Assembly: GCF_030247195.1 (NCBI RefSeq)
Contig: NC_080670.1
Span: 213,330,546 to 213,394,545, forward strand
Length of the DNA: 64,000 nt
Source: Topomyia yanbarensis
Taxonomy: Eukaryota > Arthropoda > Insecta > Diptera > Culicidae
Reading direction: 5' to 3'
Below are positions 23,386 through 48,974 of the stretch, one piece after another (position 1 is the stretch's first letter; every line of letters starts with the position of its first letter). Made by a program: the position numbers and the translations under genes. Below the pieces are notes generated by a model. It worked only from the letters and a program-made list of their open reading frames with translations, was not told the origin of the DNA and ran no database searches.

Positions 23386-23387
23386 AT

Positions 23388-27518: not shown

Positions 27519-27556
27519 GATCTAAATTAACGAAAATGTGACATAGACGAGTCGTT
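27519..27556 (+). repeat. 38-bp direct repeat, left copy
   Basis: GATCTAAATTAACGAAAATG... is repeated with two mismatches at 28334-28371. Confidence 0.7.
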
Positions 27557-28333: not shown

Positions 28334-28371
28334 GATCTAAATGAACGAAAATGTGACACAGACGAGTCGTT
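28334..28371 (+). repeat. 38-bp direct repeat, right copy
   Basis: See 27519-27556. The repeats lie 815 bp apart. Confidence 0.7.
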
Positions 28372-28839
28372 ATACCGTTGGAGAATAGTACTTCGTTTCA
28401 CGGTTTCAGCGTGGATGAAGAGGCCAAGACATTGCGAAAAGTTGTGAGCCGAAATGATCTTGATGAATAGAATCAGGCGATGAAGGATAAGATACAATCG
28501 CATGCTGGTAATTGGGGAAAAGCATCTACGGATTTAAATAAGTCATTCTGTACTCATTCGGTTTGTTCAGAGTAAAGTGAGCTTGTATTCTGGTTGCAGT
28601 TGAAAACTGGAAAATCCAACCAGCGACAATTGTATTTTCTCTTGTTTTAAGCAAGGGAAGGACGGCGGCGGTAGTGCACATTATATTCGCACAACGATGC
28701 GCTATAATGCGAACTACTTTCGACGTGATGGATTAACACTAAACAAGCGAAAAAACGATTGGTTAGGTTTTTCAGTTTTCCACTATAACGATAATAACTA
28801 CACTAAAGTAGTAAAAAGAAAACGCGCCTATTACCTAAT

Positions 28840-29960
28840 CTATGTTGAAGATGTGTAAGTGGAATGTGCAGGTAAAGCACGAATTCAATTCGTCTATAAA
28901 AGCTTGGTACAATAGTTTGAAATTTAACAACTTCTTAACACTAGAGATCAGCAAATTAGACGGAATGAAAGAATTGCCGAACGATTTGGACTGAATGACG
29001 CAAAAGGCACTATTGAGGTATCTGACGTTTAAAATACGCACACTGAGATCTCGCATTTTTATACTACCGCCCTCCCCTCAAGCCCACAAGCGGTTTGTTT
29101 TCCTCCCAATTCGCAGTGCAAATGATTTGTTTTCCTCCCAATTTAAACGTCAAAACGGCACAATACCAACGCAGCTGGATAAGTCTATGGGCGAAGGCTA
29201 TACTAAAACATCGACCGAAAGACGCACCCTTCGTTGATATTACTAACTACCGAAGCTTAGTAGGATCTCTTCTTTATATAGCGGTATGTGCGGGACCAGA
29301 TATTTCTTTTAACGCCGTTTTATACTAGTGCGGAGTGTCTGTACAGCATCATAAGCAGAAAGGGGTAGGAAGTAGCGAAATGCGTTGTACGTTACCTTCT
29401 TGCCACGAAGAGCTATCGTTTGGAATACTCCAATGTCGATGGAACTTTGGGCGGTTATTCAGCCGCAGATTAGAGGCAGGAGATCGAAAAACTTGCAAGT
29501 CTACAACTGGACTAGCATTAAATAGAATTTCTTCTTCGCGAGGATCCAATTTCCTGGGCAAGCAGATTGCAACGTAGCGTTAGTCTTCCGTCCATGGTGG
29601 ATGAGTACGTGGTTCAAAGCAAAACCTGTCAAGAATCTGAGTGGCTGTTTAGCTTAGTTTCCGTGACCTTGGAGAGTTTCAAACTGTACCGCTGGTCACG
29701 CTGAAAAACAGTCAGAGCTGCATTAAATCTGCTGAAACTTAAAATGTAAACCTTCGCACAAAACTTACCCAGACCAGCCAGTGTTACGCGAAGGAGTTGT
29801 ACAATCAAAATGTGTTGCAATTGACATACCGCCCTACTCACATCTACTCACAAAACTGCCCGGTTCAGTTAAAATCCGAAAGTTCACGGGTTTTTATCGA
29901 TGTCCGTCATCAGCAAGAACAGAAAATACATCGGTAACCCTGGAGACCATTCGCGATCGA
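28840..29960 (+). pseudogene. Ty1/copia polymerase remnant (RT end and RNase H)
   Basis: A YVEDV RT box lies near 28842. YRSLVGSLLYIAVCAGPDISF follows at 29250-29310, a classic copia post-RT block, then AGDRKTCKSTTG near 29480 and MVDEYVVQSKTCQESEWLF near 29595. The frame breaks several times. RT sequence before YVEDV is missing, and no LTR was recognised. Confidence 0.85.
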
Positions 29961-30758
29961 CTGTCAACTTTTTTCTCTGCGAGTCAAGCAGAGCTTGCTT
30001 CGATATTTTTTTTTCAAGCTGTTAACTATTGTACACTCCGGAAAAAAATATAGTGAATTTCATGAGAATATCGTATATTCGTATATTTTTCAATCACAAG
30101 TGGTACTATATAAATCATAAGATTATGTTCTGGAACGGATTTTTTTTGTCAAGACAATATGGCAATAATTTCGTTGACAAATTTTCTCCTACCGTAAGTC
30201 ACACTTACGGCTTCCATATAGAATACTTGTGACGCGAAGTCATACCGTAGTTTCGGCCAACCTTGTTGGCTTCATCTGACTTTATACACTGCTTTATACT
30301 TTTTAACAACATTCAATTAGCTAGAGCTGCCTTATCGAATAAATCAATTGAATAAACAAAATTCAGTAGGGAAAGTATAGAACCATACTTGTGGAACCTT
30401 TCAAATTTTCGAAAAAAAACCGTGAGAAAGTGAACACCGATAACTCCGGCTTTACTAGCCAAAATTATATAAATTTTGCACAATTTTTTCGAAAACAATG
30501 TGAATAATCTTGTTTCAAATTTCCAAGTATTCACGACTACAACAAATTAACGGAAAGTTGATTTTTAACGCTAGAACTATTCACTGCTGATCACAATCAG
30601 TATTAGCAAATAAGATGTAATACATTTCTTAGCGTTTTACAAAATTTTGAGACCTTTTGTGGGGAAAATAAAAGTAATAATCTTTTAACACATGGTTCCC
30701 GATTAATCAAAGGTTGAAATTTAGACGTACAGCTAAATATTTTCTTTATTCTCAACAG
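29961..30758. other. AT-rich interval, possible Tc1-like end at 30033
   Basis: TACACTCCGGAAAAAAATATAGTG near 30033 resembles a Tc1/mariner inverted terminal sequence, but no partner end was found. The remainder is presumably intron of the lectin gene. Confidence 0.35.
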
Positions 30759-30919
30759 CAACGCAAAATCCCTAGACCCCTCGAGCGGATACTGGGCCGA
30801 ATCTCTCCCAGCCATGGAAACCCCACTGTGCGCGGTCGTAGACCCAGCACGAGATTTCCGCTGGCATGCCCTTCGTTGTGGCGGCCCGGAAACGGCTGCC
30901 TTTCTGTGCGAACTACCCG
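30759..30919 (+). CDS. C-type lectin/mucin-like gene, CTLD C-terminal exon
   Basis: The exon starts after CTCAACAG and its first base completes a codon, so it needs an upstream exon ending in phase 2. It encodes the second half of a C-type lectin fold: GYWAESLPA, a Cys in PLCAVVD, the FRWHALRC core and the FLCELP end. This spacing (Cys...W...Cys...FxCE) is diagnostic of a CTLD. The Ca-binding WND motif is not present in canonical form, so sugar binding is doubtful. The preceding exon expected from phase and domain order is not on this strand nearby; a matching one is at 46511-46397 on the minus strand. The donor at 30920 is GTTTGA, a weak site. Confidence 0.85.
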
Positions 30920-30986
30920 GTTTGATAACTCCTCCCTTAACCTTAAAGAAAATCTTTCCACTAATTAAAACCACCTTTACTTTTAG

Positions 30987-32722
30987 TCCCGAACTGGGCA
31001 GCGGATTGTACCGTCACCTCAATGCCATCACTAACCGTGCAGTACATGTCGGACAGCGGAGCGGTTCAACTATCCCGAGATTGCGGTGAACAAGGAACCC
31101 GGCACATGTCCTGCCAAGGTAAGCTCGACAGGGATTCGATTATGCAGCAGCTTCAGTGTGGCGATCAAGAGGAAGATGCGGCTGCCGGTACAGCAACGGA
31201 ATCCACGGAAAATAATCAACTGTCGGGGGTTGATGATGTGGCGACACCTCAGCAAACGTCACTTCTGACGAGAAAACGACAGCCACCGGAGATTCTTGAG
31301 CACGACATACTGACGGTGGTGTCGAACAACGAGGAGGATAACAATATCGACGTCAACCCGAATCAGATCGAGGACACGGTCAAGAATGTGATCAATAAGT
31401 TTAATTTGGTAGATTTGATGCAAGGGGATCAATCGTTGCACAGCGGTGAAGATGGTGATCAGGACAAGGAAGGTAAGAAAGCTGGGGGTAAGAAGTATTC
31501 ACCCTTGTTTGAGAAAAAAGAGAAGTTCGATAAAAAGGGGGAGAAAAAAATGGATGAAGAGGATGAGATGATGATGGGTGATCAACCGGATGAAACGGAG
31601 ACGCAGCCGATCGATATCGTGCAGCAAGCGGTGAAACCTACCGAAGGGGACTCGGACGAGGGTGCGACCGCGGTAGTAGTAGTCGGAGGTTCGACGGAAA
31701 CAGTAGCGGTTTCCAGCGAGGTAACACCAACGGAGAGTACTACAATGGATTCAAGGTTGCGAAGGTCGACCGATGGAGAAGCGTACTCCGACAGTACGCT
31801 GGCTTCTTCGACTGAAGTGGTGACTACGGAAGCTTCGACTACAACCATGGAACCGACTACGAGTAGTACGGCCAGCCATATTCTTCCGACTACCCCAAAG
31901 AAAGAGTTGGCTTCCATTGGAGATCACTTCATCCCTCCGATGTTGATGGTTAAAGCTCACTTCTCTCCAACGCGAGCTCACGTGGATACGACTACCACTG
32001 AACTGCTGACGGAGACTCCGCCGACTACCGCAGCTCCGCCAACAACTTCGCAAGTACCATCAACGACAACGGAGGAGCTATCAACCACCAGCCAACCGGA
32101 AGCCATTTTTAGTAAGGAGATCTCTTCTACGGAGGCATCGTCCGTCATGGAAACTGACGCAACAACCTCTCATCAGATTGTTGAGATTACCTTCGATGAC
32201 GAAGAATTATCCTCTAAAATCGGTACCCTGAGTATAACGACCCGTCAATTCACCACTGACGATACGAAGCTAACGACGGGTGCGAACACTGAAATAACGT
32301 CCGATGCCAACATCAGCACAGTTTACAATGCAACTTCTACATCGGAAGATCACCCCTCTTCCACAACAATACAGCTAACTAGCACTACTGTAGCTGCCAG
32401 TTCATCAACGACTACCACAGTAGCTTCCACAACTACAGCGCCAACTACCAAGCTCCCGTCGACCACTCGATCCACCAGCACTACCACCACCACAACCCCT
32501 GCTCCGGTTGTCAATGTCCAGGATCACGAACTGCACGACATTTTGGAGGACAATGATGATCACGATTCTTCTGCGGAAGAACAAGAACACCACGAGGAAC
32601 TGCATAACAGTTTCTCCAACATTGAAAACTACCAACCGTACAAGCCGAACCGACGTCGAACACTCACCAAACCCGAGGTGCACAACAATCGTGGTAATTA
32701 TATTAAAAAGATTCTCGGTTGA
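30987..32722 (+). CDS. C-type lectin/mucin-like gene, last exon with Thr/Ser-rich tail
   Basis: This exon continues the lectin gene after a 67-bp intron (30920-30986); the codon split G/TC keeps the frame. It begins with a Cys-containing stretch (VPNWAADC), then acidic and Lys-rich segments (31450-31620), and then about 300 residues dominated by TTT/STT/TTE runs (31680-32500), which read as a heavily O-glycosylated mucin-like stalk. The last 60 residues are His/Asp/Glu-rich and end NYIKKILG. No transmembrane helix or GPI signal is visible, so a secreted or matrix-bound protein is inferred. Several AATAAA signals follow (from about 33245). Function is unknown; the lectin-plus-mucin layout suggests an extracellular adhesion, cuticle or immune-surface protein. 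Confidence 0.85.
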
Positions 32723-33724
32723 GGGCAGACTCGAGGCTAATTTTCATCGGCGAAGCTTCTCGATTTTATTTTCACATGCCCCAAAGAAAGGCTACGATTG
32801 GTAGCTCTGCTTTCGGGGTTCCGTTCGTCCATCGAAACTTTCTTTTCTTGTTCCATTCACATATTGACCTCTTAGCAGCAGTAGGAATACAGACACGCAT
32901 TTTGCCCTAATCTTCCCCTTTCAACTCAGAAATATTACATTATAGAGTACGAAAATGTAGAACCCCGTAGAAAAAACAATTTTTCGCATTGACTCGCTTG
33001 AGCAAATACGAATAGAATTTTCTCTTAGGCGGCCAGTCTCCTTCTGACTTAGAGAACCGGTTCTGTTTAACAACGTTCAAATTCCTGTGATCTTGTTTGC
33101 CAAATCATCCATCGAGCACAAAAAAAAAATCAAACAGAAAAAAACAATTTAACGCGTATATAGCTATAAAATAGTTGCAGAGTTTCTGATTTAACTTAAT
33201 TGACTACATACTGTATTGTTAGCGTCAATTGACAACTTTACTGGAATAAATAGTTTTAACCGCAGGTTTTAAGCAAAACCCAGTTTTTAGAAACGATCAA
33301 GAATAATTCTTTCCGTGCGAGTTAGTTGAATATTAGCGCGCTGGTAGGCAAACAAAACAAACATACGTTGCCAAGAAACATATGACATTCATAGGCGCAG
33401 TAAGCACATCAGAACATCCCAGCAGGCGCTGAGTTTAGTAGAATTAAAAAATCAAGAAAAAGCTGCAGCAGAATAATAAAACAAAAAACAAACAGCATAA
33501 ATTGAGTAAAAGCAAACATGAATAAAAAATAAACTTTTTTCGCACACGCGCAACCCATTTGCGGCTAGATGATAAGGATTTACTGTTTTAAGAAGATGGT
33601 TTTAATACAAATAAGTGAATTACGCGGGTGGGCTGTGAACCATTAATCCGAAGTTCCTGTCGCGAATGTGATATATCACAAATCCGAACTACAACGACGG
33701 CTTGAACTTGAAACCCCTTTTATT

Positions 33725-34442
33725 TCACAGCGCCTTACACTGCTTCACCACAATCTCCCGATAGAAATCAAATACCTTCTCCACCGCGGTCGTACCCATC
33801 CTCAGCGCCCGGTGGTACTGTTCCGGTGTAAACTTTCCGTGCGTATAAATAGAAACCGTATTCCTGCGGACGCTTTCAAACACAAACGTAAACTTTGCCC
33901 GTGCATCCTTGGACTGTAACTCATCCGGATCCAACGTAATTTCACCATCCTCTCCAAGCACGCTGTGCACCGCCGCTACCAGATATTTCATCTCGATGCC
34001 GCTGTTGACCAGCGCCAAACAGACGGCATTAATGGCACAAGCTACAAGTCCGCCGAGATTTTGCATTTCTTGGATCTGAACGGAGATTGCCGTTCGTGGG
34101 TGGAGTCCCGTCAGGATGGCCGATTCGTAGGTGTTTCTAATTAGACTTTCCAGCAGGCGATCGTTGACGCTTCCCAGACCGGATCGGGGTCGAAAGTGAA
34201 TTTCAACGTGGGCTTTTTCCACGTTCATATGTTGCATTTTGACTTCCGCCGGTCCGTGGACACTGGCTATGACGGCTGTTTCTCCTGGAAGGGGTGTTCG
34301 ATTGAATTTGCCTGAGCTATAATGTATTACAGTTTAGTCACATACCTTGTGTCAGCAGAGCAGATCCATCCGATCGTGTGAGAACGTTCAGCTCGCAATA
34401 CATCGGCCGCAGTGCGTTTTTTGTTTCGTCGTCGGTGGTCAT
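33725..34442 (-). CDS. Rrp46: exosome complex subunit Rrp46/EXOSC5 (two exons)
   Basis: CDS is 34442-34346 joined to 34284-33725 on the minus strand, 218 residues, with a 61-bp GTATG...CCAG intron at 34345-34285. The start MTTDDETKNALRPMYCEL and exon 2 GETAVIASVHGPAEV form the N-terminal strands of an RNase-PH fold. Later RPRSGLGSVNDRLLE and LNLGGLV-like blocks (QNLGGLVACAINAVCLAL) match the PH-domain helices of Rrp46. The protein belongs to the six-subunit ring of the RNA exosome, acting in nuclear and cytoplasmic 3'-5' RNA processing; animal ring subunits are structural, not catalytic. Length agrees with the family (about 215-235). The frame is intact with no damage. It is tail-to-tail with the lectin/mucin gene. 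Confidence 0.93.
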
Positions 34443-35417
34443 TTTGGGCTTTTATCACTGATAAACTATACTGATTTATATAAAATAAACGTGAAAGTCG
34501 TATTTTGCTATTCAGATAAAACTAGCGCTAAACACCGGTTTGTTTTATTTTAACTCGCAGGATTCCTAAAATCAATTTAATTTTGACGTTTTATATTTTT
34601 GACAATGTCTTAAGCGAGGGGTACTTTTTCTTAAATAAATTGTGACCCGCCCTCTGGATGTCAAGTCACAAACATCAAGATGGCATACACTCCCCACTGA
34701 ACGAAGAGGCGGCTAGACAGGTTAAATTAAATGCTGGCGATCGGTAGGCCAATGCAATTTTGTCCTAGGTTACCCACCGTAGCTTACCGTTTACTGTATG
34801 TGTGAGCAGCTTTGGGACGAGAATACCCCCTAAGGATGGTTGGTTTCAAAATCAAATCTCGACTAACATATGATTAGGGCCGTAAAGCCAAATTCATGTT
34901 TTTCGTTTTATTGTATAAATTGCATCCTTATTATTCATTCTTTACGCTATTGTGAGTTTATATTCGAAAAACATTATCAAAATTATGTTATTATAGTTCA
35001 CAGTAAACGGCGCACAATCCATATTAAACGAATGGTTTTCACGCCCTTTGCTTCAGTTTACGGCTTAGCTGCATTAAGCGCTTGAATTGGCATTCCGGAC
35101 CTTTACTTTTTGTCCTTATATAATCTTGTGAGTTATTTTAGGAGGATTTTATTATTGTATAGGCTTTATTGACTTTATTGATGTCGATTTCCAACCAAAG
35201 AGTTATCGTATCAAATGTAAAAAATTTAATATTAATATTTAATATGTCAAATTTGTGGTTGGTCGTTTTTTCCAATTTTTGTAAATAATTGTTATTGCCT
35301 GATTCTTCAAACAATAATGGACTTCTTGCATCACTATTTTCTTTGTAAATAACCTGTGCAACATTGCTAACAAAAACAGTAAAACCAAGTAAAACTTTGT
35401 TATAATATTATATATTA
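34443..35417. other. AT-rich interval with a foldback-family end at 34857
   Basis: TCTCGACTAACATATGATTA followed by GGGCCGTAAAGCCAA at 34857-34892 resembles the arm of the foldback element at 41127-41364. No second arm was found. The rest shows nothing recognisable. Confidence 0.4.
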
Positions 35418-35684
35418 AAAGACTCAAACATGCTTACGTTATATTTGAATGTCAGTGAAGGACTCAAATTAACGGCTGCAAAACCAACACAAAGCAAACA
35501 TGTTGAGGTAAACGGCGCAAAGCAAAGGACTTGAAAGCCAAATAATAAAAATGATTTGATTTGGCTTTCAAGTCCTTTGCTTTGCGCCGTTAACTTCACA
35601 TGTTTGTTTTGTTTTGGCTTTTCAGCCTTTATCTTGAGTCCTTGACTGACTTTCAAATACAACGTAAGCGTTTTTGAGCCCTTT
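35418..35684. mobile_element. 267-bp foldback element
   Basis: The left arm starts near GACTCAAACATGCTTACG and runs through GAAGGACTCAAATTAACGG, AACATGTTGA and GGCGCAAAGCAAAGGACTTG. The right arm is its inverted copy, ending CGTAAGCGTTTTTGAGCCC. Arms are about 115-130 bp with a short AT-rich centre at 35540-35560. Related ends in direct orientation occur at 35755 and 36988. Confidence 0.8.
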
Positions 35685-35888
35685 AGTTCAAACCACCTAT
35701 TAGTAGATCCCAGTGACAAAGCTTTTTTAAATAGCTTTTTTTTTTACAATTTAACAGTAAACGCTTACGCTATATTCAAAATTCATTCAACGGCTCAACA
35801 ACTGTACGAAAACAAACATAAACAAACAGAGTGAACGGCAAAAAAGCAAACCTCCCGAATACTACTGATCGATTTACGATTTGTAATA

Positions 35889-36504
35889 ATGTTCTCGTCA
35901 ACAGGATTCGACTTACTTCTTCGTAAGTATTACCTCAACTTACTGTTTTGTCTATACACAAAGCAATGTACTATTTTCTTTTTCAGTGGCCGCTGGTATT
36001 TCTGACCCTCCAGTTGGGGAAGAGGTGGCAAGTATAGTTGCTGATACTCCCACGGTTGCAAATTTCGAGGAAGTAGAATTTGTAAACAAAACTCCAAACA
36101 ACACTTTCCTCGAAGGTGTTTCGATGATTATATCGTCAACGCCGATAAGAAGAAGCGGAGTCATAACATTCACTGATCCCCGACAAACACTTCCACTAGA
36201 TCTGTCAGTATCAATGATTGAGAACGAGCAACCTTTAAATTTAACGATCCACACTAGCGATGTTCCATTAGATCTGGCTATGCCGAAAAGTAATACTCCG
36301 AAGAAGTTAGCAACGGAAAAGACGATAAATTTGTGTGGCGATACCCGAACAGAATCAAAGCTTAACCATATCATCTCTTCCGTCCACTCATCAAGGGATT
36401 CTTCCCGAATCTGTCGAATATCTGGAAAAATCTTCAAACGCTCGGTTTACTTTGCCGGTGAATATTCAAAAAGCCTTCTCCTGATAGTGATGGTAATGGT
36501 TTAA
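35889..36504 (+). CDS. hypothetical two-exon protein with PLDLS-like motifs
   Basis: Exon 1 is 35889-35922 (MFSSTGFDLLL plus one base) and exon 2 is 35987-36504. The intron starts GTAAGT, ends TTTTTCAG, and the split codon C/TG keeps the frame, giving 183 residues. Three related short motifs follow each other: LPLDLSV, QPLNLTI and VPLDLAM (36195-36290). PLDLS is the known docking motif for the CtBP co-repressor. No other domain is recognised. Related ends of a foldback family lie on both sides (35755 and 36988), so this may be the cargo of a multicopy DNA element rather than a host gene. A further coding-like stretch continues at 36530-36790 with one TGA. No function is assigned. Confidence 0.5.
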
Positions 36505-36529
36505 GATTTCAAAAAATTATGTGCTTCAG

Positions 36530-36790
36530 GTACCAAACGACACTTCCCGGATGTATTGAGCTCAAATACGATATATCAAATCCAACCTGGTCACAGTTCA
36601 TATTTGGGAGTGCTAATATAAGAACTGTTGTTTGACCGGATCCAATTAACAGAAAGCCAATCGCTTTGCCACAAGCTAAGTTGGATGATTTGAGGAAGCA
36701 ATTAAAATATATTAAAAACAAACCATACTACGAAACGTTCCTCAAAGAAATAGTTCCCAAAAAGAGGTCGGAAATCGAGCGGAAATAGTG
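36530..36790 (+). pseudogene. coding-like continuation after the PLDLS protein, one stop
   Basis: Reading from 36532, YQTTLPGCIELKYD, then a basic stretch with LRKQLKYIKNKPYYETF and KKRSEIERK, is open except for a TGA near 36632. It follows an AG and could be the next exon of the gene at 35889 with a nonsense mutation. No family is recognised. Confidence 0.4.
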
Positions 36791-36987
36791 AATAAGCTCC
36801 CGATAACTTCGATATGGATATGGACATGGAACTTCATGAAGAAGAAATTGATGTAACCCTTTGTTTAGCGAGTGTGATCCTCTCATATGATTGTTTGTGT
36901 ATATGCTGACAATAAAAATAAAAATGCAACGTTTATTATTTTACATAAAATACAACAGTATTATATATATTTCAACGGTAAAAGGCT

Positions 36988-37034
36988 TAAACGTGCTTAC
37001 GTTGTATTTGAAAGTCAGTCAAGGACTCAAATTA
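36988..37034 (+). repeat. end of the foldback family, truncated by the gap
   Basis: CGTGCTTACGTTGTATTTGA and the following AGTCAGTCAAGGACTCAAATTA match the left arm at 35427-35475. The copy is cut by the N gap. Confidence 0.75.
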
Positions 37035-37534
37035 NNNNNNNNNNNNNNNNNNNNNNNNNNNNNNNNNNNNNNNNNNNNNNNNNNNNNNNNNNNNNNNNNN
37101 NNNNNNNNNNNNNNNNNNNNNNNNNNNNNNNNNNNNNNNNNNNNNNNNNNNNNNNNNNNNNNNNNNNNNNNNNNNNNNNNNNNNNNNNNNNNNNNNNNNN
37201 NNNNNNNNNNNNNNNNNNNNNNNNNNNNNNNNNNNNNNNNNNNNNNNNNNNNNNNNNNNNNNNNNNNNNNNNNNNNNNNNNNNNNNNNNNNNNNNNNNNN
37301 NNNNNNNNNNNNNNNNNNNNNNNNNNNNNNNNNNNNNNNNNNNNNNNNNNNNNNNNNNNNNNNNNNNNNNNNNNNNNNNNNNNNNNNNNNNNNNNNNNNN
37401 NNNNNNNNNNNNNNNNNNNNNNNNNNNNNNNNNNNNNNNNNNNNNNNNNNNNNNNNNNNNNNNNNNNNNNNNNNNNNNNNNNNNNNNNNNNNNNNNNNNN
37501 NNNNNNNNNNNNNNNNNNNNNNNNNNNNNNNNNN
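37035..37534. other. assembly gap of 500 N
   Basis: Exactly 500 N, as at 11535-12034; probably a placeholder. Confidence 0.98.
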
Positions 37535-37725
37535 TTTGTGTGCTTTCTGGGCTCCACAAACCCGATATGATATGATTTGTTCTGTCATGCATTCGAGACG
37601 TTCGAAATTGGCATACGCCGAACGGATGGTCGGTCGAATCTACCGAAAGCAACTTTTAGCCGCTGGTATGAATGACTAAAATTATTAATTTCAAGTTAGT
37701 TTATAGTGTAGTGATAACACTGGCA
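37535..37725 (+). repeat. dispersed repeat, other half copy cut by the gap
   Basis: The sequence is homologous to 21776-21940 (TTGTTCTGTCATGCATTCGAG, CGGTCGAATCTACCGAAAG, CGCTGGTATGAATG) and begins where the copy at 12035 stops. Together the two make one full copy if contig 2 is turned around. Confidence 0.8.
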
Positions 37726-38357
37726 AGACTGTAGGGCGTGATCCACTTTTATATATTCCTTATAAATTGCATTCGACCGAAAATGACAGATTTAGAACGA
37801 AAAATTGCAACGCTTGCTACGATTCTCTTGAATGTGTTGTTTAAGCTCAAATGGGCCAACAACTGAGCCCATTATCGCGACAATCCCTTTCGCTGTGCAC
37901 AAACATGTGTTATCTGTGCCATCATTTACTCTTCACTTTTGATGACTTGTTAAGTATTTACCCCGTTCCCTTGTCGGCTGAGCCGGTTTGAGGCGAACAC
38001 TTGACTTGACTGGTGGTAATAGAATTTACCGTGCCTCGAGGCTGATCTCATTCAATTGGATTGTCCGGTTGGGAACAAAGCATGTCGTTCAACGTACCGT
38101 CCTCTAACTGTGCGTTGAATTAACACAACCGATCGGACCTACTTCCTTAGTGCACGAACAAAGCCCGGCCAGGGATGAAGCGGTTATCAGCGTTTTTCAT
38201 ACAGATGAGATAGTAAAATAAGCATTTTCAAGAGTTCAACCCTCAATGCGTGACGAATCAGTTGGTAAACACAGTACAATAGATAAGACAGTAATTCCGA
38301 ACAGCTGACAGTCGCATCCACAGTTCCGTTCGAAGCAACAGCCCAGTCCGGTTAGCA
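37726..38357. other. upstream region of the acyl-CoA synthetase gene
   Basis: No coding frame. It probably holds the promoter and 5' UTR of the gene starting at 38358. No TATA box at a convincing position was identified. Confidence 0.4.
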
Positions 38358-40037
38358 ATGTTCCATACATTCAATCCTACGACAAAAGAATGGATATCGC
38401 GTCATCCACCCCCGGCCATCGACCCACAAGCCAACTTGGGTCAGCTAATTCTGAACGTTCTGGATCGCAACCCGTCGAAAGTGCTTCAACTCGATACGGA
38501 CACCTCTCGCCAGCTGATCGCCCAGGAGATGCGCCTTCGTTCGATCCGTGTGGCACAGAATTTAACGGGACTTGGATTCGGTAAAGGTGACATGGCTGCG
38601 TTGGTTTGCTCAAACAGCGAAAACCTAACGTCGATCGCGCTCGGTCTGATGATTGCCGGAGTCCCCTTCATCACGCTTCCCGTCGGATTTAATGCCACCG
38701 ATCTTGGCCATCTGATGGGATTGGTTCAACCGAAGTTGGTGATCTGCGATGAAACGATCCACAAGACGGTGCTGGAAGGAGCTGGACAAACACTTAAAAT
38801 TAAACCCGTTATCTTCGTGATTGAGAGTGAACGGGAAAGTGTGCGGAAGGTTGACGAACTTCTGGGGGACACTGGCAGTGAAGCTGAGTTTGTGTAAGTT
38901 GGAAACTATTTGTCGGAGGCAGGAAAACAAAACAAATGATTATTTACGTTCAGTCCACAGTATCACGGTGACATGCGCAGTTTGATTGGCATCATCCTGT
39001 GTACTTCGGGGACTACGGGACGTCCGAAAGGAGTGTGTGTCTCGCAAGCACACATCGCCATTATACTTAGTCGACCAGCAACCGCTTACGGAAACACCGA
39101 TCTAATCTTCAACTTTAGTCCACTTTACTGGGGAACAGGTTTGTTCGCCCTTCTGAACTCCATCTCCATGGGAACGACTCGAGCCATCAGCCGAAGTCTA
39201 TTCAATGAAGACGTCTTCTTCGATGTACTAGAACGTCATAAACCAACGCATTTCTTTAGCCCTCCATCGCACGCTGTTCTACTGTTGAGTCACCCCCGTG
39301 CGGAAAATGCCGATTTTAGTTCCGTGCGAAGTTGGAGTCTGAGCGGCAGTCATGCCTCACCGCAACTAAGACAGGCTATACAAGGGAAACTTTCGAATGG
39401 ACGAACCTACAATAGCTATGCTTCTTCCGAGATTGGATTGATTGCGATGGATATGATGAAGGGTAAGGAGGGTACGGTGGGTCAATTGATGCCTCATCTG
39501 GATGCGAAGGTTGTCGATGAGGGCGGAATTGCAGTAGGCGTCGGTGAGCAGGGTGAAATTTTGATTCGAACAAAGATTCCGTTCATGGGTTACTACGGTG
39601 ATGAGGCAGCTAATCGTGAGCTCATAGACTCGGATGGATGGATTCGAACTGGTGACATTGGCTACTTTGATGAGGAAGGTTTTCTCACGCTAGTCGATCG
39701 GGTGAAGGATGTTATCAAGTATCGGGGCTATCAAATGTCACCGGTCGATTTGGAGGCGGTGATAGGGCGGATTGACGGTGTGCGGCAGGTTTGTGTGGTG
39801 GGGATTTCGGAGATGAGTGGTTCATCGGATTTGCCTGCGGCGGTGATTGTTAGACAGCGGGGAAGTGAGCTGACGGAGCGGCAGGTTTTGGAGACGGTCG
39901 ACCGTGAAGTGTCCGATCACAAGCGGTTGCGGGGTGGAGTTTTCTTTTGGCCGGAACTGCCACTGACGGGGACCGGGAAGGTGCTGCGGAGGGTAGTTCA
40001 GCAGCGATTGCAGGAGATTGTTGGTCGGGAAGTTTAA
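38358..40037 (+). CDS. acyl-CoA synthetase / luciferase-like AMP-dependent ligase
   Basis: Exons 38358-38893 and 38954-40037 join through a 60-bp intron (GTAAGT...CAG) to give 539 residues, the usual length for insect luciferase-like 4-coumarate-CoA-ligase-family enzymes. The P-loop SGTTGRPKG is at residues 197-205. The YxxxE adenine-site motif reads YASSE at 334-338. TGD at 411-413 is followed by the hinge region VDRVKDVIKYRGYQ. The catalytic C-terminal Lys lies in PLTGTGK (Lys521). These residues support a working adenylation and thioesterification of a fatty or aromatic acid. The C-terminus is GREV rather than a peroxisomal SKL signal, so the location is uncertain. The reading frame is undamaged and the ATG is the first in frame. 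The substrate cannot be inferred. Confidence 0.92.
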
Positions 40038-41119
40038 CGATTGGGTACTTTTATTTCGCCGTTTCAATCGGTAATTGTTGCATATATTATTTTTAATTTT
40101 AATAAAGCAGTCCGCTGGGCACAGTTTGATATCACGAACCAACTATCCACGTCCTCCGTTAATCACATTAACAATTACACTCGGTTGCTGCATACATGAT
40201 ATACACGTAGCATTTTTAGCGGTATGGGTGTCGCCCACTTTTTGCGCGAAAAAAGTCAATTTTAAAGGGAGAGATAAAGTTAATGAGATCATCACATCGG
40301 TATTATTAATAAAACACACATAAAAATCGATTCAACCTGGATGGCGTAAGCGAAAAGGTAAACATAATATTATCGCTGTACGAATGGTTCTCTGATGGAA
40401 TGGAACTCATCTGGTCCAAATGGAATCCGGAAGGGAGTTGCAACGAATGCGCGGAAGCGACACACGGCAAATATTGTCCTGTTTAGCAGATGAAACTTTT
40501 TCGGACGGAAACAGGTGCCAACATAAGCTTATTTAATGGATCAACAGGAACTTGTTTTGTGCTCAATTACTGTTTTACTATTGATCTGTCAGTGTCATTT
40601 GAATCGAACACGGAACCTCTGACCTAATGTAACATTTTGGGGTAAAACAGATTACAACATTTCGTGCTGAATTTCTCTTCAACCTCTTGGATTTTTTTTT
40701 GGAAATAGAATTGGAAGGGTGGGAAAAATGACAGCACAAAAACAAAAATAAAACAATAGGTAAGTTAAAGTCACAAGTAGTAGTTCAACTTGCCTGCGAA
40801 TAAGCCTAAAGCGCTTTATCACATTGGATAAGAAACTTTAGTATGTCTCTGAGTTTTAGTCGTCCAAACGTGGTTTCGTCTATTGTAGCGTTTATGCATT
40901 GTTGTTAACATTAAGTCAATGATGCGCCAAACAGAATCATCAATATTATACATCAAGAACATTTTGGCAACACTGTACGGCAAATCACCATTTCCTCGTC
41001 GCACGCATCAGTTGCTGCATATGTGGACACCTAATAATACTGCATCTTGGATAACTTCCACCGGATGTCATCAGCAGCAGAAGCAAAATCACGGTATCGC
41101 ACAAACACAAAGACACAGA
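40038..41119. other. intergenic stretch
   Basis: An AATAAAG signal at about 40100 may end the synthetase transcript. No other feature was recognised. Confidence 0.5.
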
Positions 41120-41126
41120 AAGTTGA

Positions 41127-41364
41127 AGTCTCGACAAATATATGATTACGGCTTAAAAGCCAACTGTCAAAATTCTCTTTGAATGGAAATTCCGGACAAA
41201 CCGTTACTCACCAACCGCAGGTATTGGTAGTAAACAAAAGAGAAAAGTTTTCTATTTCATTAACTGCTATGAACTGTATTTAGCCAGCCACGGTTTGTCC
41301 GGAATTTCCTTTTGAAGAGAATTTTGACAGTTGGCTTTTAAGCCGTTATCATATATTTGTCGAG
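41127..41364. mobile_element. 238-bp foldback element with 7-bp duplication
   Basis: Arms 41130-41207 and 41288-41364 are near-perfect inverted copies (CTCGACAAATATATGATTAC, then GGCTTAAAAGCCAACTGTC). AAGTTGA at 41120-41126 recurs at 41365-41371 and may be the target duplication. No coding capacity. Confidence 0.8.
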
Positions 41365-41371
41365 AAGTTGA

Positions 41372-42183
41372 TCGTCCATCGCGGTAGCAAGCACTTTGCT
41401 CGCGGCGACAGGTTACCGGTGATATAGCACCACAAAATCGGTTTTTCGAGCCGGATAAATTTGTCCGTCGGCACAATCAATTGGCAAATTTGCTGACGTC
41501 GTCGGAGAAAGGCTAGTGAGTCCAAAAATAAATAAGTACTGTTCGTCGAGTGAAAACGTGCCGCGTCGCGAGTGCAAAGCATCACGAAGGTAATTGCGCT
41601 CTGCCACGGAGAGCAGCTTCGAGAAAAAGATCCGGCTAACAGACGTAATCCAGAAGAGGAACGAGGTTACAAATCAGATCGCCTGCTGATTCCCGACGCC
41701 GTTAGTTAGTGGAGACGACATAAGTAAGGTAATCAACCACGTTTTACCACCATGCACAGTCTTAACCTGAATTGGTTTTAGCTCTCTTCATCCGATTGTC
41801 GATCGCAGCAGTGTTCATCGTGAACGAACGATTACACGAGGCAGTCAGATCGGCATCCAAAAGAGCCGTTGACTTCTCGAAGACGAGTAAGGTAACATAC
41901 CCTGTTTTGACATCAAGCCCAAGATTAACGTACATTGATTTCAGTACGGTTCGGAAAAGTTTCACGAACATACTCTGGCATTCGGTCTAGTGCAACAACG
42001 AACCCCGGAAAGGGTAGGCAACATTATACATGATGTGCACAAAACGGAAAATTGCATATGTGCTGTTTCAGGGTTTTTATTTGGATCCTTATATCTGGAC
42101 CTTTATTTCTGGAATTCACCTTTTGGAATCTTCACTTGGGAATTTTCCATTGGATTTCCGATTTGGAGCATCCATCTTGGACG
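41372..42183. other. stretch of unknown nature, continues after 43369
   Basis: This was contiguous with 43370-43735 before an insertion at 42198-43355. It looks like mixed-complexity transcribed-type sequence with several G-T-A-A-G-G sites, but no domain was recognised in any frame. A LINE 5' untranslated region is possible. Confidence 0.35.
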
Positions 42184-42197
42184 ATAGCGGGACCTTT

Positions 42198-43355
42198 TTT
42201 TTATTTCGTTTATTTGACACGGCTCATAGCGGTAGCTTAACGGAGCCGTGGATCTTTCATGTGTTTACAACATGTAAATATAAAAATAACAAATATTATT
42301 GATTATTCGATGGATCTCGTGCGCGCAACTTTTTATTGCGAGCGGAGACCTTCTTTCGCGGCTCGCCTACTGCGTCATGGGGATCATTTAATTCTCTCCT
42401 GTCCTTCACATCAAGGTCATCATCCTTTGTCCTTTCCTGCTTCTTGCACCTACGGGTGACCAATGTGAATCCGTCGTCTTCTTCACCGATGTTGCTTACA
42501 GTGGGTTTTGGGGTGCTGGATGCTGTTTTTTCTGTTGTCAATATGGACTGAACAGCTGCCACAAATTTGGCAACCGTTTGTGGTTCAGGTGTTGGTATTG
42601 ACAACTTTTTTTTGGGTTGGTTTGCCGTGGATACGTTGGCAATCGGTAGAGATGTATTCTTCTCTGTATCTTCCGCGTCCGTGGTGCGCTGTCTGATTAC
42701 AATACTTGCATGTAGGAGCTTGCCCCTCATGAGTGCATAACGTAGTTTGGTTAATAGTAGCTTCGTGGGTTTTGAGTTTTATAGTCAAGTGGGAGGGGAT
42801 AGGTCTTTCGATCCGCATCCTCACCACAAAAAAACCGTTAGGTGTACCTGGGAAGAAATTTCTCCACGTATCACGTGTAACGGATTCTACTTCTCCGTAT
42901 TGCGACATGTATTTTGCAATTAGATCAGGAGGGGTACGTGGTGATAGGTCATGTAGCTTTACATTAACGTAGTCTTTTTATATATACACGGGAATCTTAA
43001 TTCCAACTGTATCACTTTCAGCCACGTGCTTCAAGTTGTTCTGCAAAACGAAACGTTCGGCTTGGGCTAATGATGTTGAAGATACATAACCTCCTTAAGC
43101 CTAAGCTGCATCATCACCTTCAGCAGGTATTCCACTTCACGAAAACTCAATCGTATAGAACAAAATTTAAAGTCAACGACCGCTGTGTTGGGTCAGAGCA
43201 GAGTTTTATTGTCAATTTTACTCATGATGGCAAGAATAAATAAAAGCTTTCCTTTGTTCTCCAGACAATGCACACTAGATCGAGAGATTGCTAGTTGTCG
43301 TTCACTTGGTTCAATTGTACGTCTGACTTGGGCAGAAGTAGAAAGTAGACTCATA
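42198..43355 (-). mobile_element. ORF1-only LINE insertion with 14-bp target duplication
   Basis: ATAGCGGGACCTTT is found at 42184-42197 and again at 43356-43369, exactly flanking the block. The block is on the minus strand: an A-rich tail lies at its 42198 end (TTTTTTTATTTCG on the plus strand) behind a 3' UTR that includes a GGCTCCGTTAAGC...GAGCC hairpin. The single ORF1 reading region (about 43190-42296) has an RRM-like part with YGEVESVTRDTWRNFFPG near 42890 and a zinc knuckle CTHEGQAPTCKYCNQTAHHG near 42740. It ends immediately ahead of the 3' UTR. There is no endonuclease or RT. A stop lies near 42978. Confidence 0.8.
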
Positions 43356-43369
43356 TAGCGGGACCTTTG

Positions 43370-43735
43370 TTGCCGTACCGAGTGTTTGCTGTTTCGATGC
43401 GATCCTGCTCAAGACGGTCATTTCGCATCAAGAGTCGATTCAGCAGCATCGAATTGCCACGACGACTTTGCACGGCCACGGTATATTGCAAAGATCATTT
43501 CGATTCCATCGGAGGCAGCATTCGCCAACCGAGAGCAAACGGATTCAACAAGGGTGGCAAGATACGGTTCCTGGGTAGAGCGGTGAGCGGAATCCGTGTT
43601 AGTTTGATTGCGCAGGCCGTTGAATGGAAGAGTCACGGAAGATTCGACAGTCACCACCAGGGAGTTGGCTTGGTGCTTACAGAAGATCGACGGGAATGTT
43701 GCCGACAGGGAAGTAAAACCGCGGGCCCGTGAGTA
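43370..43735. other. right part of the pre-insertion sequence
   Basis: See 41372-42183. A 121-codon plus frame at 43367-43732 is open but has no recognisable domain and starts inside the duplicated target site, so it is not called. Confidence 0.35.
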
Positions 43736-43739
43736 ATAA

Positions 43740-45470
43740 ATAAGTTGTGTATTCAAGATAAATAGATGTAAGAGACATAGATTAGGAGTGAGAAGATATG
43801 GGATTCTGCTGTGGTTATGATTTGTTGGTGCGTATTTGTGCATGCTAGTCGGTGCAATCACGGTATTTATTCTCCGTGAGGTCAAAAGGCTACACTATAT
43901 AAGGACGGCTGAAGACTCGAAATCGCAATTGCGCTACCGCTGGACAGTTGCATATCAGATGATATGAGGTTCCGTAGTCGGATTCACAAAGATCACATGA
44001 AAAAGACTCAGCGCGCTGAATAGTTGCCATGTGATAGTTGAGTTTGCAGTGGCCGGTTAAATCCCTGGTCAGCATGCCGTAGTGGAGCTTCGAAAAATGT
44101 AGGAGATTTTTCGAAATCACTGGGCACGGTTGTTCTAGAAACGCCTTTGTTTGGCGACACGTTTGCAGATTTCTCCAATAATTGCGGTGCTCGGACGAAG
44201 CCCAGGACCGTATTTTTCCCTTATCCAATTTGTCGAAGTCAATCGCTGAACCTGCCCTGACCAATTCGTCAGCCCATTCATTTCCAGTAATACCGCAATG
44301 TCCGGGTACCCAGACAAGGTAGATAGTGTTGACAATGCTTAGTTCTTCGATTTGGCTTCGGCACGCGATCACTAGTTTGGACCGGGATTTGTCTGAGCTA
44401 AGGGCCTTGATTGCAGCCTGACTATCGGAACAGAAGTTTATAACTCTGCCGGACAAACTCAGTTGAAGGGCCGATTGTACCCCACACATAATCGCAAAGA
44501 TTTCTGCTTGGAATACAGTACAGTATCTACCTAGTGAGGGAGATTGTTCCAATCTCATTTCACGACAGTAGACACCAGCATCAGCACGTCCCTCCATCAG
44601 AGAACCGTCAGTGTAACAGACCACTTGCGTTTGTTGTTGTCTTTCCATAAAGCCAGACAACCACTCCTCTCGAGAGGGAATCTTCACATGGAATGTCCTG
44701 TAAGGAAAACTACAAGTGAGTGTAATATCGCTGGGAGCAAGAATATCTTCACCCCATGTAACCTTTTATAGCAAGATCGACATGGTTACTGTTCCAAAGC
44801 CCAGTAACCTGCAGTCTGTATGCACATGATAGTGCTTCTTGTTTTAAGTGTATGTGTAATGGTTTGATATTTAGAAGTGCCTCAAGAGCAGCAGTCGGAG
44901 TCGTGGTGAAAGCACCAGTCAACGTCATGAGCGCCATTCTTTGCAGATGGTTTAGCTTTAACTGGACTGTCACCACCTCTCCACTCTGCCCCCACACAAG
45001 GTATCCATATGACAGTATTGGACGTACAATTGTCGTGTAAATCCAATAGATGTATTTAGGTTTGATACCCCAGATCTTTCCAAAAGTTCGTCTGCACTGC
45101 CCGAAGGCCAAGCACGCTTTCTTGACTCTGAACTCAATGTGAGCAGACAATTCAGTTTGGAATCCAATATGACTCCAACGTATTTGACTGGATCTGCACA
45201 CAGTAGCTCAGAATCAAAGAACTGCAAGGGACGAACCCCGGTTGTTGTTCGCTTCTTCGTGAAGAGAACCATTGAAGTTTTGCTTGGGTTAACTGATAGT
45301 TTAACTTGTCGACACCACTGTTCGACAGCTCTTAATGCCTGTTGCATTAAGTCAAAGATTGTTCCGATGCAAAATCCAGTAATTAGTATTTGCTAATCGT
45401 CAGCAAACCCGTAGGTTGGAAATCCAAGCTCATTGAGTTTCTTCAACAAGCCGTCAGCTACTAAGTTCCA
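43740..45470 (-). pseudogene. 5'-truncated non-LTR retrotransposon: RT C-terminus and RNase H
   Basis: On the minus strand an RT FADD box near 45400 (followed by a stop) is followed by SVNPSKTSMVLFTKK near 45290, YVGVILDSKL near 45180 and a thumb region with RPILSYGYLVW near 45020. A well-preserved RNase H (265-codon frame 44687-43890) shows YTDGS near 44615, AEIFAI near 44505, SDSQAAIKAL near 44430 and VWVPGHCGITGNEWAD near 44290, so DEDD-type residues are retained. A Cys/His tail (CDLCESDYGTSYHLICNC) closes the protein. Presence of RNase H places it among I/LOA/R1-type LINEs. Frameshifts separate RT from RNase H. Confidence 0.88.
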
Positions 45471-45479
45471 TAATTTTGA

Positions 45480-46390
45480 AATATTTTTATGTTAGATTTA
45501 AGATGATTTTTTTTGCAGCTATCGTTGAACTAGGAGTACAGTTCTCTTTAGAAGCGAAAAAAAAATATTTTTATTAAAAGAAAGTAAGGGAGTCATCAAA
45601 AGCAGGGCCGTGTTAAAGCCACTCGGGGCCCCTGGGCACTACTGAACGAAGGGGCCATCATAGCTGAACAGAATTCTTCGTACTTCATTATGCGGTTAAG
45701 GCTATTTTCGTAAACAATGCGCTCGGCTATGTATAACTGCGTGAATATTACAACTTCTGTTATATATTGTAGCCGTCGCTGCCCGATCTTTCGAAGCGCA
45801 TAGTTTTAGCGCCACTCCTTTCGGAAAGCAAAGAAACGGGTGCAAATTCGAACACAGTTAACGGTGTTTGACCGCTTATTGTACCGTCCGGACTAACAAT
45901 AGCCATCATGTTGCACATTTAGCAGGCGAGCAACGAATGATTCAAACGGACACGCGGCACCACTATTTGTAACTTTACGTATTTGATTGAGTCCCTCAGG
46001 TGCTCCATTCCTCATATTGATGGTCGGTCAAATAGTACGGACCAATCGTGAGGCAGATAATTACTGCTTTCACTAAATCCATTATTTCCGATATTTTCAC
46101 TAATTGTACATTCTACGGAATTAGTTACAAAATTTTGAAGCGTGGCCCCTGTATTGGAAGGTTAGAAGCATTCTACCGCAAACTATCGTTTCGAAAACAG
46201 TAGTTCATTCTTATGAAAAATGAAGGTTCCTGAAGGAAGAGAATGGGGTTAGAACTTTTCCGCAGAGCCCTAAGCCCAAACAAATTTTTAGCAAGATCGC
46301 ATTTTTTTTCCAAATTTTGACACAGTATGGCGTCTAATTTTCGTCCTGAAGGGTGATCAAACCATGGTTCCGAGTAGTTGTGATTAAGGT
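45480..46390. other. AT-rich stretch without assigned genes
   Basis: CAGGGCCGTGTTAAAGCCAC at 45604, followed by GGGGCCCCTGGGC, looks like a hAT-type terminal sequence, but no matching second end with an 8-bp duplication was found. Confidence 0.4.
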
Positions 46391-46396
46391 ACTTAC

Positions 46397-46511
46397 GTCC
46401 AGGTGAACCGTGCCGAGTTTTCCGGCCGCATAAGCCCGATCCACACCGGATTGATCACGTCCAGCTCCTTGAGGAAGGCTCGGGCCGCATCAAACTGGAC
46501 GCCGTTGTCCA
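46397..46511 (-). CDS. C-type lectin domain exon (N-terminal half of a CTLD)
   Basis: A 115-bp exon lies between CTCTTTCAG (acceptor) and GTAAGT (donor). It encodes GVQFDAARAFLKELD and then PVWIGLMRPENSARFTW, the helix 2 and WIGL...FxW core of a C-type lectin fold. The exon ends after two bases of a codon. The lectin exon at 30759 on the plus strand starts with exactly the one base needed and with the next part of the same domain. They therefore fit as consecutive exons of one gene, although they lie on opposite strands here. No other lectin exon is visible on the minus strand below 46397 in this contig. Confidence 0.85.
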
Positions 46512-46640
46512 CTGAAAGAGAAGAAAAAACATTGCTAAGATAAATATTAAATTTTTAGCATAAAAGAATGTTTTTATTTGCTCGAAATGAAATGTGGGGA
46601 ACGTGTTTACAGATTTTGTTTACCGAAAGTGACAGTCGCA

Positions 46641-46870
46641 AATTAGGCAATCCATGAGACGTTTCTGATCAGCTGATTATTTCTTCTTTACTTATTCTGA
46701 CGTTACTACGAGGGGTGCGACGTCCGACAATATCGTTGATTCGATCCAACATCAAACGAATCGGACTAACAAAGTTGTTTGTCGGACGAGTTTTTCTGTT
46801 CGCAGGAGTATACTTGTTGACAGAACCCACCGCTGAATTGTCAAACAAACGTCTAATGGATTGCCTAATT
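46641..46870. mobile_element. 230-bp MITE with 24-bp TIRs
   Basis: AATTAGGCAATCCATGAGAC at 46641 continues GTTT; the reverse complement of 46847-46870 is the same with one mismatch. It lies in the presumed lectin intron upstream of the exon at 46511. No target duplication was recognised. Confidence 0.75.
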
Positions 46871-46874
46871 CTAC

Positions 46875-48398
46875 CTCATCGACCCAACGGACTACTCTGA
46901 TCGATGCACTGTCAGTGAAACTAGAGAAGATTGTGGAGATTTCGAAGTTCAGCTAGGTAATTTTTTTTTTCACAAAGAAGTACGTAAACGAAAAAGTCCT
47001 TCAAAACTACATTTATTAAAATCTCTTTAGTTAGACCTGTCTTGCCGAAGAATAAGGACAGAATCACAAATACGCCTATTTGATAGCGTTTATGCTTTTC
47101 GTTCTAAGAGGCGTTTACTTAGTGGAAACTAAATACATTCCGACAAACTGGATGAGAGGGCGGAATATGAAAGCATCGCCATTTCATCTCACAGAACACC
47201 GCACTGACAAGTGCAGAAAGCGGCTTGCAGCTGAGTTGGATGTTGGATTGATGAAGGGAAAGAAAAGCCCCATCCCCATCTCCTCTCTGTTAAAGAAACC
47301 TTATACACTGTACCACCCATTCATTCGAATATATGTAGGTACATATAATTCGATTGATGCTCGGGCAGAGAAGCTCTTCCATATAACTACTCAAGAAGTG
47401 AATTGAATAAATTTTCCTATAGGGTTGCAATTTCACTCCGGGAATGATTGTTCTCGGATGTCTCCGATTCGCATCCCATTCTTTCGTTCCCCCCTCCACC
47501 TTCTCTCTCCTTTCTGATGGGTCGCAGCAATGATTTAACATGAAACCCTCCGACTCTCAACTTTTGCCACTTGTGTTATTACATGAAGTTGGCTGGTTGG
47601 TTATCAGAATGGCGAAACGCAATTTGCATGAACACAAGAGTTCTGTTTCCAGCAGTCCCAGACAAAGCTCATTCTTCGAATGCGGGGTAGGGGGCTAGAG
47701 AAAGTAATTTATTTGAACAGCACTCAAATTATGCATGAAGATGTATGGGGCCCACGACTGTGAGTGGGTTCACAGTTCGAAGTTATTATCGTTTTGACAT
47801 CAATAATCGTGAGCTTTGTGGGGCGTTGTGATAGTTGCTTGCGTTTGATGTAGAAAATTTCGTAGAACATTTCCAATTAAATTTTAAATTCTTATTTGAT
47901 TTTTTCATCTGTGCATTGAAATCTTAGCAGGCGGGTGCACATCAGAGCTGAAAGAATTGATAAAGTTCTGCAAGTATGTATTTACAAGCCTGGAACAAGT
48001 AGGCCGAGAAACGTATTTGCACAAATGCTTCGTAGCAGCGAAACTGATATGATTACCTTCGTTTGTTATCGGAGGAAGCTCGGGTGGTCTGGCAACGTGT
48101 TGTCCTCCCGAGGATTATTTATTTGTGTACGGTTTTCTTTGTCAAGTCGTGATGTATGTGTACTGATGCTACAGTCTGTTAGTCTTTCTGGTATCGGCAG
48201 TGTATCTGTGTGTGTGTGTAAGTGAAACAAACAGAAGCATATCTTTGCATGCCGATCATCGTTTTATGTTTGTCGTTCTGTGTCATCTTGATTGGGATCC
48301 TACTACTTGTGACATTATTTTGCAATCGAGGAGACGTGTAGGGAATGACATCCCGGAGAAAACCTACATTGCTTTAAGACGATCATTTTAATATACAC
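46875..48398. other. stretch without recognised genes
   Basis: Open frames at 47080-47406 and 47290-47541 overlap on opposite strands and show no domain. A short TG microsatellite lies near 48205. Confidence 0.45.
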
Positions 48399-48621
48399 TT
48401 AGGCTGTGAACCACTCGGCGATTTTTTTAACTTTTAGTTAAAATTGACAGTTTGAAAGTTTTTTTTCCTCCGAATGGAAAAATTTAACCGAGAGAGCGAA
48501 CCATTTCAAAAGTTGACATATGGATAGTTATTTAGAATTGACAGCTGCGATGACCACAAGTTAGTAGAGGTGTGAACATTTGTCGATATTTCAAAATTAG
48601 TTTTTTTCTTATTACATTAAG

Positions 48622-48755
48622 TATGACCAAATACAAATATGTTAATACGGAATGCTCTGGTAATTTTTCGAGGACGCGTTTTACGCTACCCTGTACCTGG
48701 AAAGGTACAGTGTCAAAGTGACAGTGTACTTTGATGAAATAATGCTAAAACTGGC
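48622..48755 (-). repeat. dispersed repeat shared with 18330-18475
   Basis: Inverted copy of the repeat at 18330-18475, lying 220 bp inside the left TIR of the 48402-52312 element. Confidence 0.8.
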
Positions 48756-48974
48756 TGCACTGACGAACTTGTTGTGGATTTTCTGACGTTTGCACATGTT
48801 TTAGTTTGTTTCTAAAGAAAAACCGGCGACGTTACAAATTTCAGACTAAAGTTGCAAAATTTTGCTGCCCGTGGACTGAGGAGGTCAAATACTGTGTGAG
48901 GCAAGTTACACACGTGTATTTATTCTATTCAAACACAAGTGTAATAGTTAACAAGTCATGTAGGGAGTCGATAA

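What the first reader, a model, noticed from the sequence alone, without database searches (positions are those of the whole stretch)
30759..46511. One C-type lectin gene has its exons on opposite strands
The exon at 46511-46397 (minus) encodes the first half of a CTLD and ends after two bases of a codon. The exon at 30759-30919 (plus) encodes the second half and begins with the single base that completes that codon. Splice sites at both junctions are proper GT/AG and the joined fold has the usual WIGL...FxW...Cys...Cys spacing. Exons of one gene cannot lie on opposite strands. The gap at 37035-37534 lies between them, so an inverted contig, or a real inversion breaking the gene, is implied.
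Basis: partly seen in the sequence, partly recalled or inferred. Interest (0 to 1): 0.88.

Follow-up and report, generated by a model that had tools for sequence, protein, structure and literature searches.

The report
Lectin gene scrambled by assembly error
The two lectin exons do belong to one ordinary mosquito gene, and they lie on opposite strands most likely because the genome assembly was cut at 25,000-base steps and the pieces were put back in the wrong order and direction.

Summary
Exons at 46511-46397 (-) and 30759-30919 (+) are two parts of one C-type-lectin-like domain, with matching phase and splice sites. Of 72 relatives, the 43 in which both exons were recognised all carry them end to end. 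The own-genome search gave one match per exon. The cause is an assembly artefact. Distances between eight successive 500-N gaps are exactly 25, 50, 25, 50, 25, 25 and 175 kb. I tested all 120 pairings of the 16 cut ends for repeats running across the joint: six hit, none conflicts with another, and none is an assembled joint. One re-joins the left end of 12035-37034 to the left end of 37535-87534. In the implied order the four exons found (A at C1:213640604, then B, C, D) follow each other on one strand, with introns of 69,869 and 27,586 bp. The flipped piece is the 50-kb one at 37535, holding exon B; the 25-kb piece is displaced but not flipped. The genome is Topomyia yanbarensis. A real inversion, trans-splicing or a second gene is very unlikely. 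Two of eight joints rest on elimination plus the gene's direction; reads were not available.

The parts
46397..46511 (-). Lectin exon B: middle of the CTLD (DNGVQFDAARAFLKELDVINPVWIGLMRPENSARFTWT)
   Evidence: one match in the own genome
30759..30919 (+). Lectin exon C: C-terminal part of the CTLD (NAKSLDP...FLCELP)
   Evidence: one match in the own genome
30987..32722 (+). Lectin exon D: Cys-containing stretch followed by a Ser/Thr-rich mucin-like tail, to the stop codon
   Evidence: T. yanbarensis protein P0009, which starts inside exon C, is 100% identical over the part compared
11535..12034 (.). 500-N scaffolding gap (false joint 11534|12035)
37035..37534 (.). 500-N scaffolding gap (false joint 37034|37535)
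12035..37034 (+). Assembly piece P2, exactly 25,000 bp: displaced, not flipped in the implied order; holds exons C and D
37535..64000 (-). The part inside the window of assembly piece P3 (exactly 50,000 bp, 37535-87534): flipped in the implied order; holds exon B
21442..21909 (+). Uncut repeat copy that aligns across the re-joined ends rc(12035...)|37535...
   Evidence: 71% identity, E 3e-79
12035..12421 (-). One half of the repeat cut between P2 and P3
37535..37682 (+). Other half of the same repeat
11360..11534 (+). End of a non-LTR-retrotransposon-like reverse-transcriptase frame cut at 11534; it reads on in frame at C1:213418580 (window coordinate 88035), not at 12035
   Evidence: family named from recall
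36979..37034 (+). Start of a repeat cut at 37034; it continues at C1:213645080
   Evidence: uncut copy at 35416-35761

Best explanation
One gene for a CTLD/mucin-like protein was cut apart by scaffold editing. A contiguous source sequence on chromosome C1 was cut at multiples of exactly 25,000 bp, and the pieces were re-laid in the wrong order with two of seven flipped, joined by 500 N. The implied true order is X, P-1 (flipped), P0, P4, PA, P5, P3 (flipped), P2, Y; in it exons A, B, C and D lie in sequence on one strand. Shown: the grid, one match per exon, contiguity of the protein in relatives, and six of eight joints supported by repeat alignments (one also by a reading frame, one by terminal inverted repeats). 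Inferred: the two remaining joints (X|P-1 and P5|P3), and that the cutting was done by a Hi-C misjoin-correction step of the 3D-DNA type.
For: Seven of seven distances between eight successive 500-N gaps are exact multiples of 25,000 bp; five of these pieces were read through, the interiors of the outermost 25-kb piece and of the 175-kb piece only in part. Of 20 probes at grid positions, 2 hit a gap, at 213266080 and 213644580. Of all 120 pairings of 16 cut ends, 6 show a repeat alignment reaching at least 30 bp past the joint on both sides (5 reach 40 bp); the six are mutually compatible, and 0 of the 8 assembled joints do so. Among random joints of held sequence at least 2 kb apart, 25 of 3000 pass at 15 bp, 8 at 20 bp, 1 at 30 bp and 0 at 40 bp. 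The reverse-transcriptase frame cut at 11534 runs on as FR|KYPHRFGHASSPLCPECVNVRETPEHVVFECSRF. P4|PA brings together terminal inverted repeats that match. Exons A-D splice in phase into 713 aa without an internal stop, 66-69% identical to P0001, P0002, P0003 and P0007 over the A-D length. B and C are adjacent in 43 of 43 relatives in which both were recognised. [quoted passage not shown]
Against: Joints X|P-1 and P5|P3 have no bridging repeat in held sequence. A 400-bp P5|P3 query matched only its own two halves in the genome; the search for X|P-1 and the genome-wide search for more copies bridging P2|P3 did not complete. The bridging test used only the roughly 184 kb of neighbouring sequence plus a few small loci. 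A repeat copy makes a joint likely; only reads would prove it. The P2|P3 alignment has a 7-bp difference at the cut. A random-joint run that did not exclude close neighbours had 2 of 1000 passing at 40 bp, one of them between distant points. The signal-peptide exon upstream of exon A was not found in the 8 kb searched. Eighteen of 20 grid probes hit no gap. Which scaffolder made this assembly was not seen.
Confidence: 0.97

Rival explanations
1. A real chromosomal inversion in T. yanbarensis broke the lectin gene between exons B and C.
For: The strand change is in the assembled sequence.
Against: Gaps of 500 N on a 25-kb grid lie between the exons; a repeat bridges the P2-left/P3-left joint; exon A is dislocated too, on a third piece; all four exons are open and conserved, unlike a gene long broken.
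Confidence: 0.01
2. Exons on opposite strands are joined in trans at the RNA level, as in Drosophila mod(mdg4).
For: Phases and splice sites match across the strands; trans-splicing of opposite-strand exons is known in flies (recalled).
Against: The strand difference disappears in the re-paired order; relatives carry A, B and C as one protein, several of them assigned to a single chromosome-length contig. Alternative 3' exon sets were not looked for.
Confidence: 0.01
3. Two separate lectin genes, each with its own complementary half nearby.
For: The genome has many other CTLDs (23 PF00059 matches, a lower bound).
Against: The orthologue query gave one match per exon in 1.17 Gb and no second copy of B or C (4 matches from 6 candidates scored).
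Confidence: 0.01

Closest known systems
Mosquito CTLD/mucin-like gene AAEL006825 (Aedes aegypti, P0022) / AGAP000940 (Anopheles; P0035 is named AGAP000940-PA-like)
   Same: Close homologue, probably the orthologue (no reciprocal test): 80% identity for P0022 over 82% of the region searched; B and C adjacent in the 43 relatives in which both were recognised.
   Different: Placement: in the T. yanbarensis assembly the exons are split over three pieces, and the public protein P0009 (LOC131691843) is a truncated model starting at METPLC in exon C.
Order and orientation errors of Hi-C scaffolders after misjoin correction (for example 3D-DNA; PMC6719893, passages seen)
   Same: Input sheared into pieces and re-laid in wrong order and direction.
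   Different: Here most cuts can be re-joined from sequence alone in one stretch of about 379 kb. The tool behind this assembly is not verified; a 25-kb default and 500-N gaps are recalled. PMC10336049 (one passage) raises the editor resolution option 'so as to avoid unnecessary fragmentation'; PMC8389630 (passages) sets it to 100,000.

Membership tests
C-type-lectin-like domain (Pfam Lectin_C, PF00059) | Profile match over the curated cut-off | tested here: met
   Joined B+C+start of D 24.5 bits against 22.6; each half alone none
C-type-lectin-like domain (Pfam Lectin_C, PF00059) | Four framework cysteines across exons A and C | tested here: met
   Read from the A-D translation: AVCQF, PLCAV, LRCGG, FLCEL; their assignment to the family's framework Cys is recalled
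Calcium-dependent sugar-binding C-type lectin | EPN/QPD and WND motifs (recalled) | tested here: not met
   The stretch reads ...METPLCAVVDPARDFRWHALRC; no EPN, QPD or WND in exons A-C (read by eye)
Scaffolding order/orientation artefact | Breaks coincide with artificial fixed-size gaps on a fixed grid | tested here: met
   8 gaps of exactly 500 N; 7 of 7 distances between them are multiples of 25,000 bp
Scaffolding order/orientation artefact | Cut ends re-pair in another order | tested here: met
   6 of 8 joints bridged by repeat alignments; 0 of 8 assembled joints
Scaffolding order/orientation artefact | Raw reads contradict the assembled joints | not testable with these tools
   No reads or Hi-C map available
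mod(mdg4)-type trans-spliced gene | Exons really on opposite strands in the chromosome | tested here: not met
   Opposite strands vanish in the re-paired order

The most novel reading that the evidence does not exclude
A polymorphic real rearrangement exists in the sequenced colony, so that some chromosomes carry the lectin gene intact and others broken, and the editing step cut the contig because Hi-C signal from both forms conflicted.
Probability: 0.01. Interest if true: 0.5.

Novelty: not a real feature. Interest (0 to 1): 0.12.

Why it matters
It matters for data quality. A chromosome-scale mosquito assembly holds a stretch of about 379 kb, C1:213266080 to 213645079, in which two of seven pieces appear flipped and five out of order, and the protein model P0009 derived from it lacks the first part of its lectin domain. 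Synteny, inversion or structural-variant studies that use this stretch would be misled. The check used here (exact-multiple piece lengths plus repeats bridging re-paired cut ends) needs no reads and could be run on other assemblies.

Tried and rejected
First idea: the 25-kb piece 12035-37034 is simply flipped in place. It repairs B-C, but it is rejected because it leaves 11534 joined to rc(37034), where no held repeat bridges, the reverse-transcriptase frame stops after two residues, and exon A stays unexplained. Of the ways to pair the four left-over ends, X.R-P3.R with P-1.R-P5.R would close a circle, and X.R-P5.R with P-1.R-P3.R would put exon A pointing away from exon B; both rejected by reasoning. 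Exon A was not found in the window nor in 40 kb to its left and 80 kb to its right before the genome search found it. Paper searches: AAEL006825 or AGAP000940 gave 0 papers; a five-term search on 25-kb 3D-DNA fragmentation gave 0 papers with at least 4 terms; 'Topomyia yanbarensis' gave 4 papers seen only as a listing, none by title about its genome; some searches were seen as listings, apart from the three papers of which I saw passages. A signal-peptide exon in the 8 kb before exon A gave no convincing hit. Grid probes without a gap: 4 of 4 on the right and 3 of 4 on the left, and 11 of 12. How widespread such cuts are in the rest of the genome was not measured.
Full report
What is there. 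Exon B (46511-46397, minus) ends after two bases of a codon at GTAAGT; exon C (30759-30919, plus) begins after CAACAG with one base; joined they read ...ARFTWT|NAKSLDP... without a stop. Exon D (30987-32722, plus) follows exon C in phase and ends at a stop. The joined 669-aa protein, searched with residues 1-260, found 72 relatives; the best eight match at 80-84% identity over 95-100% of that region. A BLASTP check of all 72 against exons A, B and C (E up to 0.001) recognised at least one exon in 58: A+B+C in 35, B+C in 8, C only in 15; 14 gave no match. In all 43 with B and C the two are directly adjacent. So the two exons belong to one gene. A protein of Topomyia yanbarensis (P0009, LOC131691843) is 100% identical over 78% of the searched region and begins at METPLC in exon C; it lies on a contig of 217,786,545 bases, the length of C1 here, so the window is from that mosquito (taxonomy).

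One gene, three places. A 193-aa query made from an orthologue gave four matches in the own genome, one per exon: A at C1:213640604 (+), B at 213377063-213376935 (-), C at 213361302 (+) and D at 213361525 (+) (the tool scores only its best candidates, here 6 of 6). The gene is thus broken in two places, not one: exon A lies 263 kb to the right of exon B and on the other strand. Exon A ends in phase with exon B (CTCGTCACAG|gtgagt, then tg|GACAAC), and A-D translate to 713 aa with no internal stop, 66-69% identical to four relatives along their length.

Why the strands differ. I fetched 120 kb of neighbouring sequence and found further 500-N gaps, then made 20 probes at grid positions, of which 2 hit a gap. 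The eight gaps start at C1 213266080, 213291580, 213342080, 213367580, 213418080, 213443580, 213469080 and 213644580; the distances between them are exactly 25,000, 50,000, 25,000, 50,000, 25,000, 25,000 and 175,000 bases. Five of the seven pieces were read through; the interiors of the first and the last were read only in part, so a gap off the grid inside them is not excluded. Exon A and everything from it to the end of its piece was read (loci). Natural contig ends would not be expected on such a grid; an editing program does this (inference). If the cuts were made in continuous sequence, each cut end must fit one other cut end.

Finding the partners. For all 120 pairs of the 16 ends I joined 400 bp from each side and looked for repeat copies that align across the joint, in the roughly 184 kb of neighbouring sequence plus some small loci. 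Six pairs were hit, each by an alignment reaching at least 30 bp on both sides; five of the six reach at least 40 bp. None uses an end twice and none of the eight assembled joints is among them. Random joints at least 2 kb apart pass the 15-bp limit in 25 of 3000 cases, the 30-bp limit in 1 and the 40-bp limit in 0; an earlier run that did not exclude close neighbours had 2 of 1000 at 40 bp, one of them between distant points. In uncut control segments 133 of 1000 had a bridging copy, so the lack of one at two joints is not surprising; that six of eight cuts lie in repeats suggests that the cuts fell preferentially in repeats (inference). The joints are: P-1.left to P0.left; P0.right to P4.left (a reverse-transcriptase frame reads on...FLFVYGYFR|KYPHRFGHASSPLCPECVNV..., while at the assembled joint it stops after ten residues); P2.left to P3.left (a repeat copy at 21442-21909, 535 query bases, 71% identity, with a 7-bp difference at the cut); P2.right to Y.left (up to 88% identity); P4.right to PA.left (weakest alignment, 37 bp on one side, but it brings together matching terminal inverted repeats); and P5.left to PA.right.

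The order. These six leave four ends. One pairing would close a circle; of the two others, only X-P-1 with P5-P3 lets exon A run towards exon B. The order is then X, P-1 flipped, P0, P4, PA, P5, P3 flipped, P2, Y. In it exons A, B, C, D follow one another on one strand with introns of 69,869 and 27,586 bp. The piece between the window's two gaps is therefore displaced but correctly oriented, and the flipped piece is the next one. The P5-P3 joint was searched in the whole genome and matched only its own two halves, so it lies in sequence without a detected repeat and cannot be tested this way; the search for X-P-1 did not complete, nor were three tries at a genome-wide search for further copies bridging P2-P3.

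How the error arose (inference). Misjoin correction by a Hi-C scaffolder of the 3D-DNA type cuts input contigs at a set resolution; that its default is 25 kb and that it writes 500-N gaps is recalled. [quoted passage not shown] PMC10336049 (one passage) describes raising the editor resolution to avoid unnecessary fragmentation. I did not see how this assembly was made.

What the gene is. The domain has four cysteines placed as in a CTLD but reads FRWHALRC where calcium-dependent lectins have WND, and has no EPN or QPD (motifs recalled), so calcium-dependent sugar binding is unlikely; the tail is Ser/Thr-rich like a mucin. Relatives' N-termini look like signal peptides by eye, so secretion is likely; that exon was not found here. 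The named relatives are flies and midges as well as mosquitoes. Nothing about the gene itself is unusual.

Verdict.

Noticed in passing
C1:213266080-213645079 (window -64465 to 314534): Seven assembly pieces whose lengths are exact 25-kb multiples, in scrambled order; other genes in this stretch may be broken in the same way, and the rest of the genome was not checked.
   Followed up: partly
P0009 (LOC131691843, T. yanbarensis), window 30759-32722: The public protein model starts inside exon C and lacks the first part of the lectin domain, as expected from the mis-scaffolding.
   Followed up: yes
P0017, P0021, P0022 and others (C only in 15 of 58 relatives, P0009 included): Models in several relatives also lack exons A and B, perhaps because long introns hide them from gene prediction.
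   Followed up: partly
P0003 (Sabethes cyaneus, LOC128732456): The model has retroelement-like residues (Pfam PF05380 listed) fused in front of the lectin, probably a chimeric prediction.
   Followed up: no
window 33725-34333 (-), 38295-40037 (+), 58075-58893 (+), 61705-62208 (-): Ordinary neighbour genes by Pfam: an RNase PH-type protein, an AMP-binding enzyme in two frames, SSRP1, and a short-chain dehydrogenase.
   Followed up: no
window 35416-35761 and 36979-37034: A repeat with inverted copies, uncut at 35416-35761 and cut at 37034 with its continuation at C1:213645080.
   Followed up: partly
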